DNA of 64,000 nt from positions 1-64,000 of the forward strand of contig NZ_JAUHPV010000012.1 of NCBI RefSeq assembly GCF_030418315.1, given 5' to 3'. Origin of the DNA: Demequina zhanjiangensis. GTDB lineage: Bacteria > Actinomycetota > Actinomycetes > Actinomycetales > Demequinaceae. How positions within the stretch are numbered: position 1 is the first letter of the stretch; the number at the start of each line of letters is the position of its first letter. The position numbers were made by a program, and so were the translations under genes. The notes beneath the pieces are model-generated. The model was given only the letters and a program-made list of their open reading frames with translations. It was not told the DNA's origin and searched no databases. Of the stretch, positions 51,524 through 57,158 are shown one piece after another.

Positions 51524-51901
51524 TCAGACGAGACCTGGCTCCGCGGCCCGCTCCTCCATGCGGCGCGCAACAGTGCGCACCTGCCGATAGACGTCGTGAC
51601 CCGACGACTCCAGGTCCACGACCACGATCATCAGCAGCTGAGTGCCCACGGGACGCACGATCAGCTGCACGTCCTCGCCGTAGACGATCACGCCCTGCGG
51701 CGATCCGAGATCGAACACCTCTGCTGACAGCCCCGCAGCCCCCATCAGCGCCGCCACGCAGGCGGCACCCGCCGCGCGCTCCTCAAGAACAGCGTCGTCG
51801 TAGTGCGCGATGCCGTCCTGCAGCGAGAAGACGACCCTGCGGACGCCCGTCGCCTGGCGCAGCAGTGCCGCAGCCTCGGCGCACTCCTCGCGGGGGATCA
51901 C
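51524..51901 (-). CDS. Roadblock/LC7 protein 1
   Basis: 125 residues, one roadblock/LC7 alpha-beta fold (about 15-110): RVVFSLQDGIAHYDDAVLEERAAGAACVAAL, then QGVIVYGEDVQLIVRPVG. Partner-type protein for MglA GTPases. GTG start overlaps the stop of the next roadblock gene by 4 bases. Last gene of the module, convergent with the IclR gene. Confidence 0.8.
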   Translation of the reverse strand: MIPREECAEAAALLRQATGVRRVVFSLQDGIAHYDDAVLEERAAGAACVAALMGAAGLSAEVFDLGSPQGVIVYGEDVQLIVRPVGTQLLMIVVVDLESSGHDVYRQVRTVARRMEERAAEPGLV

Positions 51902-52281
51902 GAGACCGCCATCGCTGGGCCCGCGAGGCGCCTGAGGACTGCGATCTCCGACTGAGCAGCACTCGCGAGCGCTACGGTGTCGACTCCCGCCTCCGCGACG
52001 ATCGCCAGCAGATGCTGGTGATCGACGGGAACCACGAACAGGCTGCCCTGCGCGCCCATCGTGAAGGTGAACTGCACCTCATCGAGGTCCAGCGACGCTG
52101 ACGACGTATCGGCGAGCCCCAGCACCGCGGCCGTGAGCGCAGCGGCGCCGTCCCGCTGCTCGAGAGGCACGTCGTCGTACAGCGCGATGCCGTCAGTGCG
52201 GGCGATCACCACCCGCCGGATCCCGTCCACCTGCTTGCGCAGGCGGGCCGCGGCGAGCAGGCCGTGCTTGGCGACGATCAT
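51898..52281 (-). CDS. Roadblock/LC7 protein 2
   Basis: 127 residues, a roadblock/LC7 fold paralogous to protein 1: RVVIARTDGIALYDDVPLEQRDGAAALTAAVLGLA and FTFTMGAQGSLFVVPVDHQHLLAIVA. ATG start, with AAAGGACC somewhat far upstream. The shared spacing suggests proteins 1 and 2 arose by duplication and may form a heterodimer. Confidence 0.82.
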   Translation of the reverse strand: MIVAKHGLLAAARLRKQVDGIRRVVIARTDGIALYDDVPLEQRDGAAALTAAVLGLADTSSASLDLDEVQFTFTMGAQGSLFVVPVDHQHLLAIVAEAGVDTVALASAAQSEIAVLRRLAGPAMAVS

Positions 52282-52329
52282 GACGACGAAGGTCCTTTCG
52301 GAGTGAGGAGAGGGGGCGACGGGGTGCGT

Positions 52330-52854
52330 CTAGCGCGCGAGCGCGACGCTCCCGAGAAGGTGGCGCAGCACCCTCTCGCAGTCGGCGGGGTCTCGCGGAT
52401 CGCACTGCACGAGCGCGGCTTCGTCGATCCCGACGAAGGCCGCCACCTCGGCGGGCGACTGCGCTGACTGATCCCATCGGTTCGCGGCCACGACGAACGG
52501 CACGTCGGGCGCGAAGCCCTGGAACTGGCGGACGATCGACCGGAGCTGAGCGAGGGCCTGGAGCCTGCTCGCGTCGACGAGCAGCACATACGCGCTCATG
52601 CCCGTGGACAGCACCGGCCACATGAAGCTGAAACGCTCCTGGCCGGGGGTTCCGAAGAGGGTGACGACGGTGTCGTCGTCGAGGCGCGCGGTGCCGTGGT
52701 CCATCGCGACCGTCGTGCGCTGCTTGAGGGCCGACGTCGCGTCCGTGACCTCACGCTCGGCTCCCACCGAGTCGGCGGTGACAGTCTGGACGAAGGTGGT
52801 CTTGCCGGCACCGAACGGTCCGCCGACGACCACCTTGATGACCTCTGCAGGCAT
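52330..52854 (-). CDS. MglA-type small Ras-like GTPase
   Basis: 174 residues. P-loop GGPFGAGKT (11-19), G3 GTPGQERF (68-75; Gly replaces the usual Asp, as in many prokaryotic MglA/CvnD proteins), G4 NRWD (125-128). The TTVAMDHG switch region is typical of actinobacterial conservon GTPases. ATG 52854 chosen for GGGAGGG upstream; the open frame is longer. Switch of the module with three roadblock proteins; no CvnA kinase or CvnC (DUF742) is here. Confidence 0.88.
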   Translation of the reverse strand: MPAEVIKVVVGGPFGAGKTTFVQTVTADSVGAEREVTDATSALKQRTTVAMDHGTARLDDDTVVTLFGTPGQERFSFMWPVLSTGMSAYVLLVDASRLQALAQLRSIVRQFQGFAPDVPFVVAANRWDQSAQSPAEVAAFVGIDEAALVQCDPRDPADCERVLRHLLGSVALAR

Positions 52855-52915
52855 GCTTCCCTCCCCAGGCAAGCCGACGGCGGGGCAGCCTGAGAGCCGC
52901 CCCGCCGCACGGATG

Positions 52916-53281
52916 CTAGATCTCGATTGCCTTCTCGATGTTCTCGAGCTGGCGGCGCGCCATCGCCAGGTTCGCCTTGTCCTTCTCAAGCGCGAGGTAC
53001 AGGAACAGGCCCTGGCCGGTCGCCGCGGTGAGCGGATGGATGATGTGGAACTGATCCTTGAGGATGATCATGATGTCCTCGATCGGCCCCTGGATGCCGG
53101 TCGAGTCCATGACGCGCAGCTTGGCGCGCAGCACCTCGGTGTTTCCAGCACCCGCGACCTCGAGGTCGATGCCCGACCCTGCGGTTGCGAGCGTCATCCC
53201 GGTCTCGATGTCGACCATCGCGGTCGCCTTCGCGCCGTCGATCTTGAGCGCGGCCTGCACGGCCTCGTTCGGCGTAGCCAT
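52916..53281 (-). CDS. Roadblock/LC7 protein 3
   Basis: 121 residues, roadblock-type fold: IDGAKATAMVDIETGMTLATAGS, then EDIMIILKDQFHIIHPLTAATGQGLFLYLALEKDKANLAMARRQL. It differs clearly from proteins 1 and 2 and has an amphipathic C-terminal helix. ATG 53281; AGGAGA lies 14-19 bases upstream with an AGG closer. First gene of the module. Confidence 0.8.
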   Translation of the reverse strand: MATPNEAVQAALKIDGAKATAMVDIETGMTLATAGSGIDLEVAGAGNTEVLRAKLRVMDSTGIQGPIEDIMIILKDQFHIIHPLTAATGQGLFLYLALEKDKANLAMARRQLENIEKAIEI

Positions 53282-54689: not shown

Positions 54690-54784
54690 GCGCCACGCCG
54701 CCGAGGTCCGCACCACCGCGAGATCGCGGCCCTGCCAGGACCTTGGACCGACGAAAGGACCCCTCGGACGCGCGACGCTTAAGC

Positions 54785-55306
54785 ATGGCTATCTGGGTCG
54801 TCTACGAGTCGCTGTGGGGCAACACCGCCGCAGTCGCCCATGCCATCGCCGAGGGCATCGGAGACGAGGCGAAAGCCGTCTCGACCGCCAGCGCAGACCC
54901 CGCCGAGGCCGTCGGCCTGCGCGCGCTCATCGCCGGCGCACCCGTGCACGGGATGACCCTTCCCACGACGCAGTCGATCGCGACCGCCACCGCCCACAAG
55001 GTCAACGACGATCATGCCGAGCCTCGCACCGACGAGCCGCTCATGAGGGACTGGCTGGACGGCCTGCCCGAGCTCAGGATCCCTGCGACGGCCTTCGATA
55101 CTCGAGTCCGCGGGCCGCTCGGCCGCGGGGCCGCGACCGCGATCATCCGTGCGGAGGCATCGCGAGGCTGCACGTTGCTCGCGCAGCCCAAGGGCTTCCG
55201 CGTGGACTTCCGCAACGCCGGACCCGAGCAGGCCGACCTCCTGAAGGAGGGCGAGCTGTCCAAGGCACGCGCGTGGGGTGCGGAGCTGGGCGCGCTGCTG
55301 AGCTGA
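54785..55306 (+). CDS. Flavodoxin-like protein
   Basis: 173 residues. N-terminal YESLWGNTAAVAHAIAEG is the FMN phosphate loop; APVHGMTLP follows as the second FMN loop. The C-terminal half is extended relative to bacterial flavodoxins. ATG 54785 has no clear ribosome site; a TTG at 54743 with CCAGGACC is an alternative. Electron partner unknown. Confidence 0.8.
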   Translation: MAIWVVYESLWGNTAAVAHAIAEGIGDEAKAVSTASADPAEAVGLRALIAGAPVHGMTLPTTQSIATATAHKVNDDHAEPRTDEPLMRDWLDGLPELRIPATAFDTRVRGPLGRGAATAIIRAEASRGCTLLAQPKGFRVDFRNAGPEQADLLKEGELSKARAWGAELGALLS

Positions 55307-55359: not shown

Positions 55360-56340
55360 TCAGTCCTTGCTGGTGGACTTCGACTTGTCGCCCGAGTTCC
55401 CGCGCGTGTCCGCGGTCGCGTTCGGGTTGGAGTTCGAGTTCGGGCCAGGCTTGGCGTCCTCATCGGTCGAGCTTCCCGCGTCGTCGCCGCTCTTCGCGCC
55501 GCCCGCGTTCGATCCGGAGCTGCCTGAACCCTCCTTGGAGTTGCCAGCGCCGCCGTTCGCGTTGCCGGAGTTGCCGGGCGCCTCGTCGGTCACGTCCTCC
55601 TCGACAGCCGGCTCCGAGCCGCTGCCGCCCTCAGCGGCGACAGCGTCCTCGTCGGCGGCCTCGGGCTCGACGATGCCCCGCGCGTGCTGGGACACGGCCT
55701 GACCGAACTCACGGCCCGTGAGCTCCGTCTGCGTCATGAACGTCAGCATCGCGGCGACCTGCTCACGCCGCTCGAGCGACTGCTCCGAGCCTTCGTTGAG
55801 CACCGACTCGGCCGCGTGCAGGAGCCCGGTCAGCTCCTCCGCCTCGTCGTCGTCCATCCCGTCCATGTCCTCGACGGCCTCGACGGAGGTGTCGAGCGCC
55901 TGCTCCACCTCGTCGTCCGCGAGGAGGGCCTGCACCTCGGCGAGGCGCTCCTGCGCTCCGCCGTTGTTGATCCCGACCACCTCGAGCGCGCGGTCGAGCC
56001 CGTAAAGGAAGTCTCCGGGAGCAGCCTCGTCGGCCATGGCGGCGCCACCGAAGGCGACTGCACCAAGACCCGCAAGAGCGAGGGCGATCGCGCCACGACG
56101 GCGCGTGCCTGAAGAGGAGGGACGCGACGCGCCGACCGGGCCGCCGTCAAGGGGGGCGGCGGCGGCCACGGCGGCGAGCCGACCTGAAAGGCCGACTACG
56201 TGCGCGTCGTCCATCTCCGTGACGTAGGTGCGACGGATGCCGTCGACCGCGTCGGAGAGGACGCCCAACTCTGGGTCCGCCGGCCTGCGGCCGGCGAGCA
56301 TGGCTTCGACGTCTGCGTCGGAGATGCGGCGTGAAGTCAT
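55360..56340 (-). CDS. Membrane protein with DUF5667-type domain, putative anti-sigma factor
   Basis: 326 residues. Cytoplasmic N-terminus of about 95 residues (anti-sigma-like, SDADVEAMLAGRRP), one membrane helix (about 100-118), then ADEAAPGDFLYGLDRALEVVGI, the mark of DUF5667. After a helical acidic part comes a 100-residue tail rich in Gly, Ser, Asn and Asp. Directly downstream of the ECF sigma gene with stop/start in close contact; this pairing in actinobacteria points to a sigma/anti-sigma unit. The target signal is unknown. Confidence 0.8.
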   Translation of the reverse strand: MTSRRISDADVEAMLAGRRPADPELGVLSDAVDGIRRTYVTEMDDAHVVGLSGRLAAVAAAAPLDGGPVGASRPSSSGTRRRGAIALALAGLGAVAFGGAAMADEAAPGDFLYGLDRALEVVGINNGGAQERLAEVQALLADDEVEQALDTSVEAVEDMDGMDDDEAEELTGLLHAAESVLNEGSEQSLERREQVAAMLTFMTQTELTGREFGQAVSQHARGIVEPEAADEDAVAAEGGSGSEPAVEEDVTDEAPGNSGNANGGAGNSKEGSGSSGSNAGGAKSGDDAGSSTDEDAKPGPNSNSNPNATADTRGNSGDKSKSTSKD

Positions 56341-56350
56341 AGCACTCCTG

Positions 56351-56929
56351 TCATCGCTCGCGCCCATCGAAAGGTGACGCACCGTCCGCAAGTTTTTTCC
56401 GAAGAACCTTCAGCGCACGGCTCTGGATCGCCTTGACCGCCCCTTCGGAGCGTCCGAGCGCCTGCGCCGCCTCGGCCACGGACAGGTCACCGACAACCCG
56501 CAGCATGAGGACGTCACGCTGCGCCTCGGACAGGTGGGAGATCAGGCTCTCCACCTCGATCAGGGACATCGCGTTCATCGCGTCCGACTCGGTGTCCCCG
56601 AGCCAATGCGTCTCTGCGACCTCCATCGCCGTGTCGCCGTCCATCGTGCGGACCTCGCGCCCGCGCTTGCGGAACGCATCCTGCATACGCCGGTGCGCGA
56701 TGGTGAAGACCCAGGAGCGGAAGTCGCTCTCGTCGCCCTCGAAGCGGTGGATGTCCTTCGCCACGGACAGGAAGGTCTCAGAGACGAGGTCCTCCACGTC
56801 GGGAGCGCCACGGCTCCTGAGGTAGCCGCCCACGTTCCCAGCGAGATCGCGGTAGAGACTCTCCCACGCCCACGCGGCCCCGGTGCGAGCGGCAGCGAGC
56901 ACCGAGTCGAAGTAGTCGCCTAGAGCCAC
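56351..56929 (-). CDS. ECF-type RNA polymerase sigma factor
   Basis: 192 residues. Region 2 (DVEDLVSETFLSVAKDIHRF ... SWVFTIAHRRMQDAFRKRG) and region 4 (LSEAQRDVLMLRVVGDLSVAEAAQALGRSEGAVKAIQ). GTG 56929 chosen: GAGGGG precedes it, the length is then typical, and the promoter at 57017-57046 lies upstream of it but downstream of the next possible start (57049). Partner of the DUF5667 protein. Confidence 0.9.
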   Translation of the reverse strand: MALGDYFDSVLAAARTGAAWAWESLYRDLAGNVGGYLRSRGAPDVEDLVSETFLSVAKDIHRFEGDESDFRSWVFTIAHRRMQDAFRKRGREVRTMDGDTAMEVAETHWLGDTESDAMNAMSLIEVESLISHLSEAQRDVLMLRVVGDLSVAEAAQALGRSEGAVKAIQSRALKVLRKKLADGASPFDGRER

Positions 56930-57016
56930 TGCCCGCCCCTCGTGATCGCTCGGTCCAGGCTGGCGGCCGTCACCCGCCCCCCAGCTGGCAGCCGAGCAGA
57001 TCTCGGCTCGGCGCGA

Positions 57017-57046
57017 ATCTAACACTCCGGAAGGGAGTGGACGAAA
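57017..57046 (-). promoter_or_regulatory. Promoter of the sigma gene with palindrome in the spacer
   Basis: -35 TTTCGT (57041-57046) and -10 TTAGAT (57017-57022), 18 bases apart on the minus strand. The spacer holds the perfect inverted repeat CACTCC-N5-GGAGTG (57023-57039), a place where a repressor or activator could act. Confidence 0.5.
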
Positions 57047-57158
57047 CACCCACGATCGCGCCTCGTGCTCACCCTACGGGGGTGTGAGAGCAACACCACA
57101 GCGTCACGCCGGCGCACGTGAGAGCAGACGAGGGCCGGGCCGGCACGCGCGCGTGGAC

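What the first reader, a model, noticed from the sequence alone, without database searches (positions are those of the whole stretch)
51524..53281. MglA GTPase module with three roadblock proteins and no kinase
Actinobacterial conservons normally carry a kinase-like CvnA, one roadblock CvnB, DUF742 CvnC and GTPase CvnD. Here the GTPase has three different roadblock proteins, two in tandem, and neither CvnA nor CvnC. It may be a minimal switch with two alternative partner dimers, perhaps acting on polarity or signalling, with unknown input and output.
Basis: partly seen in the sequence, partly recalled or inferred. Interest (0 to 1): 0.6.

Follow-up and report, generated by a model that had tools for sequence, protein, structure and literature searches.

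The report
GTPase switch with three roadblock partners
In bacteria of the genus Demequina, one small molecular switch protein is encoded with three partner proteins of one shared fold and without the sensor kinase usual for such switches in this phylum; it is a separate variant of a known switch family, and its closest relatives elsewhere sit among genes for grappling-hook pili.

Summary
Minus strand 53281-51524 encodes roadblock RB3, an MglA-family GTPase, then tandem roadblocks RB2 and RB1 (4-bp overlap), in the same order in 14 of 14 Demequina loci. It is not a conservon that lost its kinase: the genome has a complete cvnABCD on another contig, and module GTPases and CvnD form separate, fully supported clades. 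RB1 is a tandem paralogue of RB2; loci from other genera have RB3-GTPase-RB2 alone. RB3 matches no Pfam or NCBIfam model but is predicted to fold as a roadblock (pLDDT 92, Z 16.8). It belongs to a widespread unnamed family in which the acidic residue before the invariant turn glycine is Ser/Thr (65 of 67, never acidic). RB3 is the most conserved part. The GTPase's relatives lie in type IV pilus loci (PilB in 36 of 38), as do some conservons of the order; this genome has pilB-pilT-pilC, though not near the module. Most likely it is a self-contained Mgl-type switch: RB2 (with RB1) acts on the GTPase, RB3 is an MglC/Ragulator-like adaptor, pilus dynamics the output. RB3's role and the output are inferences. 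Verdict: new variant of a known kind, with an unnamed roadblock subfamily.

The parts
52916..53281 (-). RB3: divergent roadblock protein (121 aa), unnamed family; first gene of the module
   Evidence: no Pfam/NCBIfam roadblock match; AlphaFold pLDDT 92.4; roadblock fold, VIA Z 16.8 to 3kye (44)
52330..52854 (-). MglA-family small GTPase (174 aa)
   Evidence: (Roc 1.9e-9, Ras 2.2e-8), tree
51898..52281 (-). RB2: roadblock protein (127 aa), MglB/CvnB-like
   Evidence: (Robl_LC7 5.9e-11)
51524..51901 (-). RB1: roadblock protein (125 aa), tandem paralogue of RB2; its start overlaps the RB2 stop by 4 bp
   Evidence: hhalign E 1.7e-22 to RB2; VIA Z 19.2 to 9jue
52798..52821 (-). GTPase G1/P-loop GPFGAGKT
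   Evidence: Sequence
52639..52653 (-). GTPase G3 motif GTPGQ (Groups 2-5 type; Group 1 has TVPGQ)
   Evidence: definition from PMC4316618 section 15
52471..52482 (-). GTPase G4 motif NRWD (Arg in place of the canonical Lys of NKxD)
52189..52194 (-). RB2 beta1-beta2 turn Asp-Gly
51812..51817 (-). RB1 beta1-beta2 turn Asp-Gly, invariant in 14 of 14
53198..53203 (-). RB3 beta1-beta2 turn Thr-Gly in place of Asp-Gly
   Evidence: correspondence of the turns from predicted structures (39, 76) and profile alignment (108)

Best explanation
The four genes form one operon for a self-contained Mgl-type G-protein switch, separate from the conservon of the same cell. Shown by sequence and predicted fold: an MglA-family GTPase with intact P-loop and GTPGQ, two paralogous canonical-type roadblocks (RB2, RB1) and one deeply divergent roadblock (RB3), kept together as a unit. 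Inferred: RB2 is the direct partner (GAP or GAP-like) of the GTPase; RB1 is a duplicate that pairs with RB2 or competes with it; RB3, which lacks the acidic turn residue and is the slowest-evolving part, is not a GAP but a dimeric adaptor that couples the RB2/RB1-GTPase unit to a conserved third party, as MglC does with MglB and as LAMTOR heterodimers do in Ragulator. Inferred output: control of type IVa pilus extension and retraction (PilB/PilT), the setting in which relatives of this GTPase are found. Confidence by part: separate Mgl-type switch 0.85; RB2 as direct GTPase partner 0.7; RB3 as non-GAP adaptor 0.5; pilus output 0.45. The number below weighs this account (a separate switch with pilus output) against the rivals; it is not the chance that every step is right.
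For: Order RB3-GTPase-RB2-RB1 in 14 of 14 Demequina loci, also in L153 and L154. Module GTPase in 21 of 297 order genomes, RB3 directly upstream on the same strand in 21 of 21. Loci from at least two other genera (Sanguibacter L018; L124 of G197; L127 and L128 of genus g15) have RB3-GTPase-RB2 and no RB1. Contig C9 of G232 (same length as the D. sediminicola contig of L006) has a second GTPase-RB2 pair without RB3 and RB1, 4-5 kb away (L152), so GTPase-RB2 is the core. Mean pairwise identity in 14 Demequina: RB3 75%, GTPase 58%, RB2 53%, RB1 40%. Residue before the invariant turn Gly: RB1 Asp 14/14; RB2 Asp 12/14, Glu 2/14; RB3 Ser 62, Thr 3, Leu 1, Asn 1 of 67. Separate clade from CvnD. Pilus link: PilB in the held sequence of 36 of 38 loci L019-L053 and L055-L057 (the two misses are contigs of 3.8 and 3.4 kb), PilT near the GTPase in 6 of 7 Zetaproteobacteria loci (miss L054); in three genomes of the order (G055, G022, G220) CvnB-CvnC-CvnD stand just upstream of pilB-pilT-pilC; in genus g15 the module lies 17.4-22.3 kb from pilT in 6 of 7 module genomes, the seventh (G092) having the two on different contigs; own genome has pilB-pilT-pilC-pilin at C12. 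MglC precedent: PMC7949163 abstract, sections 4 and 13.
Against: No PilB/PilT/PilC match in any of the 14 module loci L005-L018 (up to about 5 kb each side; L012 holds only 1.3 kb upstream) nor anywhere in the 64-kb window; the genome's T2SSE and T2SSF matches are all on other contigs. All 23 genus genomes have PilT, with RB3 (13) or without (10), so within the genus the module is not needed for having pili. The conservon of this genome has no pilus gene in the 16 kb held around it, and 30 or more of the 80 GTPase loci outside the pilus-linked groups show none. The genome has no DUF4388 match, which in the Coriobacteriia-type operons stands beside the GTPase. RB3 often stands without a GTPase within 2.5 kb (25 of 36 RB3 loci, a chosen and not a random set). 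No interaction, GTPase or GAP activity was or could be tested; no complex was modelled.
Confidence: 0.43

Rival explanations
1. Same switch, different output: the GTPase controls something other than pili (transcription, cell-wall growth or division site, metabolism), and the pilus link of its relatives is an old association lost in this clade.
For: No pilus gene near the 14 module loci or in the window; 10 of 23 genus genomes have PilT but no RB3; Vulcanisaeta, Chloroflexota and other loci of the wider tree show no pilus match; outer neighbours of the module differ between the loci read.
Against: Pilus genes neighbour GTPases on all sides of the module clade in the tree: Coriobacteriia-type loci, the outgroup L035/L044, Zetaproteobacteria, and some CvnD loci of the order; in genus g15 the module lies within 22.3 kb of pilT in 6 of 7 genomes.
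Confidence: 0.27
2. One reading: RB2/RB1 and RB3 form alternative dimers that compete for the GTPase and give it two states of output.
For: Three roadblocks of one fold in one operon; RB1 and RB2 diverged after duplication.
Against: RB3 has no detectable sequence kinship with RB1/RB2 on the Demequina profiles and lacks the Asp of the DG pair that PMC4316618 places near MglA; RB3 stands without a GTPase within 2.5 kb in 25 of 36 loci, so its partner is probably not always a GTPase.
Confidence: 0.15
3. A conservon that lost cvnA and cvnC and is served by the CvnA/CvnC of the conservon elsewhere in the genome.
For: A complete conservon is present in this genome, and 23 of 23 genus genomes have DUF742 and a CvnD-level GTPase hit.
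Against: Module GTPases and CvnD are separate clades, each 100/99; the resident conservon keeps its own CvnB and CvnD and has no RB3 (one RB3 match in the genome); 10 genus genomes keep the conservon without the module; RB3 also occurs in Pseudomonadota and Deinococcota, outside the Actinobacteria to which PMC4316618 confines conservons.
Confidence: 0.08
4. A module under decay: RB1 is a drifting, dispensable duplicate and only GTPase-RB2 works.
For: RB1 is the least conserved part (40% mean identity); loci of other genera do without it.
Against: RB1 is present and open in 14 of 14 Demequina loci with 12 invariant columns, and its dN/dS is 0.10-0.34 in four pairs.
Confidence: 0.07

Closest known systems
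Actinobacterial conservon / AGPS (CvnABCD)
   Same: Small MglA-family GTPase encoded with a roadblock protein; GTPGQ G3 motif; non-canonical G4 and an Arg in the G5 position
   Different: No kinase and no DUF742 locally, three roadblocks in place of one, GTPase in a separate clade; a true conservon exists elsewhere in the genome
Group 3 MglA systems of beta/gamma-Proteobacteria (Wuichet and Sogaard-Andersen 2014, PMC4316618)
   Same: One GTPase with one or two MglB homologues; RB3 relatives stand in loci of that layout (Comamonas L144: protein with a winged-helix match, GTPase, roadblock, RB3; Steroidobacter L075)
   Different: Those have an upstream receiver/winged-helix-like protein, absent here; here three roadblocks; the GTPase does not group with L075/L079 (L144 is a long branch, its place unsure)
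Myxococcus xanthus MglA-MglB-MglC
   Same: One GTPase with two roadblocks of one fold and under 9% identity, one a GAP and one binding the GAP (PMC7949163)
   Different: MglA is Group 1 (TVPGQ, Arg finger); MglC keeps an acidic residue at the turn (FDGI), RB3 does not; counterparts of RomR/RomX were not searched for
Coriobacteriia/Anaerosomatales-type pilus operon GTPase (roadblock-DUF4388-GTPase-PilB-PilT-PilC)
   Same: By identity the next relatives of the GTPase after Demequina and Sanguibacter, 40-50%, with a roadblock in the operon
   Different: Inside a pilus operon and with DUF4388; one roadblock found, no RB3
Ragulator (LAMTOR2/3 and 4/5) with Rag GTPases
   Same: Several roadblock proteins assembling on small GTPases; p14/LAMTOR2 chains are among the best structural matches of RB3
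   Different: Eukaryotic membrane scaffold with LAMTOR1; comparison is of fold only

Membership tests
Conservon (AGPS) | cvnA histidine-kinase-like gene in the operon | tested here: not met
   None among the neighbouring genes; the genome's CvnA found here is on contig C11
Conservon (AGPS) | DUF742 (CvnC) gene in the operon | tested here: not met
   The single genome-wide match is on C11
Conservon (AGPS) | GTPase belongs to the CvnD (Group 2) clade, G4 NxFD | tested here: not met
   Separate clade 100/99 (3 CvnD rows); G4 is NRWD
MglA family, Groups 2-5 | P-loop, Thr-Thr in G2 without the Group 1 Arg finger, GTPGQ in G3 | tested here: met
   GPFGAGKT, TTVAMD, GTPGQ in the window; GTPGQ in 12 of 14 Demequina rows, GAPGQ in 2
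MglA family, Groups 2-5 | Encoded within four genes of an MglB/roadblock homologue | tested here: met
   Adjacent to RB2 and RB3
MglA Group 1 (MglA/SofG type) | TVPGQ in G3 and Arg finger in G2 | tested here: not met
   definition read
MglA Group 3 | Upstream conserved receiver/winged-helix-like protein | tested here: not met
   No same-strand gene directly upstream by the gene caller; a divergent gene starts there
Roadblock/LC7 fold (RB3) | alpha-beta-beta-alpha-beta-beta-beta-alpha fold matching solved roadblocks | tested here: met
   Predicted model only: 3kye E 1.2e-6; Z 16.8, rmsd 2.1, 114 aligned
Roadblock/LC7 family by sequence (RB3) | Match to Pfam Robl_LC7 above cut-off | tested here: not met
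   0 of 18 members at E 1; 1 of 28 diverse members at E 0.1, with E 0.021; profile-profile colinear over 109 columns but weak (probability 28.5%, E 6e-4)
Roadblock/LC7 (RB3) | Acidic residue before the invariant turn glycine | tested here: not met
   Ser/Thr in 65 of 67, Leu 1, Asn 1, acidic 0
MglC | Roadblock fold, binds MglB, acidic residue in the FDGI turn | tested here: inconclusive
   Fold match to 7ct3 moderate (TM 0.54); the turn residue differs; binding not testable
Type IV pilus regulators | Acts on PilB/PilT or pilus polarity | not testable with these tools
   Gene-neighbourhood evidence only
MglB-type GAP (RB2, RB1) | Stimulates GTP hydrolysis of the cognate GTPase | not testable with these tools
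   Fold and Asp-Gly pair present

The most novel reading that the evidence does not exclude
RB3 belongs to an unnamed, widespread bacterial roadblock family that serves as a general adaptor for NTPases: small GTPases with classical roadblocks (Demequina, Steroidobacter, Comamonas, a blue-light BLUF sensor locus in Agarilytica), two-domain ABC ATPases in several actinobacterial families, and a DUF4388-like protein. In Demequina it is joined by a duplicated GAP-like pair into a three-roadblock, Ragulator-like assembly on one GTPase that sets pilus dynamics, as the neighbouring conservon branch may do in other families of the order.
Probability: 0.25. Interest if true: 0.75.

Novelty: new variant of a known kind. 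Interest (0 to 1): 0.5.

Why it matters
It shows that actinobacteria carry Mgl-type GTPase switches outside conservons, and gives a compact four-protein set in which the roles of several roadblocks on one GTPase could be sorted out in vitro. It also exposes a roadblock subfamily that Pfam and NCBIfam do not name, although it is found in Actinomycetota, Deinococcota, Pseudomonadota and (by the plasmid tally) Hymenobacter, next to GTPases, ABC ATPases and a light sensor. If the pilus reading is right, it would add a G-protein regulator to type IV pili of these Gram-positive bacteria, which as far as I know (recalled) has not been shown.

Tried and rejected
Kinase-less conservon: set aside by the tree and the resident conservon. 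Defence system: the four proteins gave one PADLOC hit at E 1, a P-loop match at E 0.027, not followed. Phage origin: best PHROGs match of RB1-RB3 at E 0.071. RB3 against sequences of solved structures: none at E 1 with the 18-row profile, best E 0.4 with the 28-row profile, a roadblock. Module GTPase profile against solved structures: none at 1e-5; the single sequence finds eukaryotic small GTPases, mostly Rab, at E 3.7e-5 to 0.0096. PilT co-occurrence across the order: of 297 genomes, RB3+ PilT+ 32, RB3+ PilT- 13, RB3- PilT+ 72, RB3- PilT- 180 (tallied by hand, PilT over the cut-off); all 21 module genomes are PilT+, but they are only three genera, so I give it little weight. DUF4388 partner elsewhere in the genome: none at E 0.001. 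A second pilT-like gene at C1 was read by eye for pilMNO neighbours; none recognised. Papers: PMC4316618, sections 12, 14, 15 and 18 and passages; PMC7949163, outline with abstract and sections 4 and 13; PMC13343842, passages; all others search listings only. No paper on this module or on RB3 was seen in the listings of searches; supplements could not be read, so whether the 2014 survey counted RB3 proteins as MglB homologues is unknown. Rows dropped: of 91 sources 89 gave a GTPase row (none from L056 and L143), and 64 of the 89 were put in the tree after near-duplicates were left out; for the RB3 turn count 67 distinct of 90 rows at E 1e-20. Some start codons were mis-picked (three GTPases lost the P-loop; L018 RB2 and L010 RB1 were shortened), so the P-loop was read. 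Gene names marked 'by eye' come from no call.
Full report
WHAT IS THERE. The minus strand from 53281 to 51524 encodes, in order of transcription, RB3 (121 aa), a small GTPase (174 aa), RB2 (127 aa) and RB1 (125 aa), with gaps of 61 and 48 bp and a 4-bp overlap between RB2 and RB1. The gene downstream (an IclR-type regulator, named by eye) converges on RB1, and the gene upstream (adenosine-deaminase-like, named by eye) diverges from RB3, so the four genes stand alone as one unit. The GTPase has Ras/Roc matches with an intact P-loop, GTPGQ in G3, NRWD in G4 and CDPRD in G5. The genome is taken as Demequina by inference: the best named relatives are Demequina, and genomes listed as of the same genus have contigs of the same lengths as those named records.

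ARE THE THREE PROTEINS ROADBLOCKS? RB2 passes the Pfam cut-off (E 5.9e-11). RB1 does not (E 0.023), but profile comparison makes it a paralogue of RB2 (99.5%, E 1.7e-22), and its predicted structure (pLDDT 88.5) matches solved roadblocks (Z 19.2 to 9jue, 17.9 to 3kye). RB3 matches no Pfam or NCBIfam model (for 18 members no roadblock model) and no profile of RB1 or RB2. Its predicted structure is confident (pLDDT 92.4, pTM 0.86), and its best matches are roadblocks: 3kye from Streptomyces, MglB, Ragulator p14. A broader RB3 profile of 28 rows aligns end to end with a mixed roadblock profile over 109 columns, weakly (E 6e-4, probability 28.5%). RB3 is thus a roadblock by fold and an outlier by sequence.

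IS IT MORE THAN CHANCE? In 13 Demequina loci found through the GTPase, plus the window, the order RB3-GTPase-RB2-RB1 is the same (14 of 14), although outer neighbours differ between the loci read. In 297 genomes of the order, the module GTPase (185 bits or more, against 105.5 or less for the next hits) occurs in 21: 13 of 23 genus members, G197 (whose GTPase groups with Sanguibacter), and seven of genus g15. In all 21, RB3 lies 53-158 bp upstream on the same strand. In four species pairs, dN/dS is 0.02-0.36 over the four genes.

HISTORY OF THE MODULE. Sanguibacter L018, G197 (L124) and the two g15 loci read (L127, L128) have RB3-GTPase-RB2 without RB1, so RB1 most simply arose by tandem duplication of RB2 on the Demequina line. 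The core pair is therefore GTPase-RB2. Within Demequina, RB3 is the most conserved part (75% mean pairwise identity), then GTPase (58%), RB2 (53%) and RB1 (40%). A protein that is more conserved than the GTPase itself probably touches several partners or a very conserved one (inference).

NOT A REDUCED CONSERVON. The same genome has a full conservon at C11:417821-423804: kinase-like CvnA with NIT, HAMP and HATPase domains, CvnB roadblock, CvnC DUF742, CvnD GTPase. All 23 genus genomes have DUF742, 10 of them without RB3. In a tree of 64 GTPases, the 18 module rows are one clade (100/99) and the three CvnD rows another (100/99). The GTPase belongs to the MglA family in the sense of Wuichet and Sogaard-Andersen (PMC4316618, sections 12, 14, 15 and 18 read). 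It has the G2 and G3 motifs of Groups 2-5 and, like their Groups 2 and 3, lacks the G4 lysine and has an Arg in G5. I do not assign it to one of the five groups, because no reference tree of theirs was available.

THE TURN RESIDUE. In roadblocks an invariant glycine in the beta1-beta2 turn is preceded by an acidic residue, and this turn makes partner contacts (PMC7949163, section 13; PMC4316618, section 15). RB1 has Asp in 14 of 14, and RB2 Asp in 12 and Glu in 2 of 14. Across 67 distinct RB3 sequences of the fetched loci the glycine is invariant, but the preceding residue is Ser in 62, Thr in 3, Leu in 1 and Asn in 1. This speaks against RB3 being an ordinary GAP and for another role (inference).

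WHAT DOES IT ACT ON? By identity the next relatives of the GTPase after Demequina and Sanguibacter (40-50% identical) come mainly from Coriobacteriia-type genomes. In those read the order is roadblock, DUF4388 protein, GTPase, a further protein, PilB, PilT, PilC. Of 38 loci (L019-L053 and L055-L057), 36 hold a PilB match; the two without are contigs of 3.8 and 3.4 kb. Six of seven Zetaproteobacteria loci have PilT near the GTPase, on the other strand. The remaining loci L058, L061-L067, L069-L072, L074, L075, L077-L079 and L081-L084 show none. In the tree the Coriobacteriia loci lie beside, and the pilus-linked L035/L044 outside, the module clade. The CvnD branch is partly pilus-linked too: in G055, G022 and G220 CvnB-CvnC-CvnD stand just upstream of pilB-pilT-pilC, and the listed rows place CvnD about 3.1 kb from PilT in five more genomes of family f20. 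A pilus link is thus the simplest ancestral state. The window's genome has pilB-pilT-pilC-pilin on C12. In genus g15 the module lies 17.4-22.3 kb from pilT in six of seven genomes. Against this: none of the 14 module loci L005-L018 has a pilus match in the 5 kb or so held on each side, nor has the window, nor the conservon locus of this genome; all genus members have PilT with or without the module, and the genome lacks DUF4388. I hold the pilus output at 0.45.

MECHANISM. Most likely the GTPase cycles between GTP and GDP, RB2 (alone or with RB1) sits on it and sets its hydrolysis, and RB3 links this unit to a third party. The nearest worked precedent is MglA-MglB-MglC of M. xanthus, where MglC shares the fold and under 9% identity with MglB and binds two MglB dimers away from the MglA site (PMC7949163 abstract). 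Binding, stoichiometry and catalysis are not shown here.

RB3 ELSEWHERE. RB3 was found in 45 of 297 order genomes and 21 of 396 phylum genomes, and on 28 plasmid records including Deinococcus, Comamonas, Acinetobacter, Agarilytica and Hymenobacter; in the 20 listed rows it is annotated as hypothetical protein or not at all. Of 36 RB3 loci examined (31 chosen from the order and 5 plasmid records), 11 have an MglA-family GTPase within 2.5 kb and 6 a two-domain-size ABC ATPase within 1.5 kb with a score over 200 bits (two ABC domains confirmed by Pfam for five of the six). In Agarilytica it precedes a BLUF light sensor, a GTPase and a roadblock. So RB3 is not tied to one GTPase family.

VERDICT. 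This is a new variant of the known Mgl-type GTPase/roadblock switch, with a roadblock subfamily that Pfam and NCBIfam miss. Interest 0.5.

Noticed in passing
L164:3022-10466 (G055), L166:6069-13231 (G022), L165:6125-11608 (G220): Conservon genes CvnB-CvnC-CvnD directly upstream of pilB-pilT-pilC, on one strand, in two families of the order (f20 with one further gene between, f9 without): conservons wired into a type IV pilus operon. Listed coordinates suggest the same in G070, G112, G126, G154 and G239.
   Followed up: partly
L137, L138, L139, L157, L158, L159 (RB3 loci): RB3 genes beside a two-domain ABC ATPase gene, in L158 and L159 overlapping it by 4 bp, with no permease recognised next to it by eye: a possible ABC-ATPase/roadblock pair.
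   Followed up: partly
L146:5001-7072 (Agarilytica rhodophyticola plasmid pSU2): RB3, BLUF blue-light sensor, MglA-like GTPase (annotated hypothetical) and roadblock in a row: a possible light-controlled GTPase switch.
   Followed up: partly
   Followed up: partly
L133:5439-8604 (G135): Two RB3-type genes, one divergent, with a DUF4388-like gene on one side (E 3.9e-5, 24.1 bits, cut-off 25) and a similar-looking gene without a Pfam match on the other, near upp and tadA (by eye); L158 has RB3 near upp and tadA too.
   Followed up: partly
window 55360-57049, minus strand: ECF sigma factor gene followed by a gene with a weak DUF5667 match (below cut-off); a similar-looking pair lies near the module in L153 (3127-4789, by eye).
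   Followed up: partly
window 54743-55306, plus strand: Gene with a weak flavodoxin match (E 3.6e-4, below cut-off) near the module; similar genes and DUF393-like genes recur beside the module in several Demequina loci (by eye).
   Followed up: no
G318, G421, G453, G537, G621: Large genomes of one genus carry several RB3 copies, with a divergent RB3 match about 1.4-1.6 kb from a typical one.
   Followed up: no
L160:2448-7085 (G093): Two roadblock genes and a divergent RB3-like gene, with further similar-looking genes by eye, and no GTPase match within 2.5 kb of the RB3-like gene.
   Followed up: no
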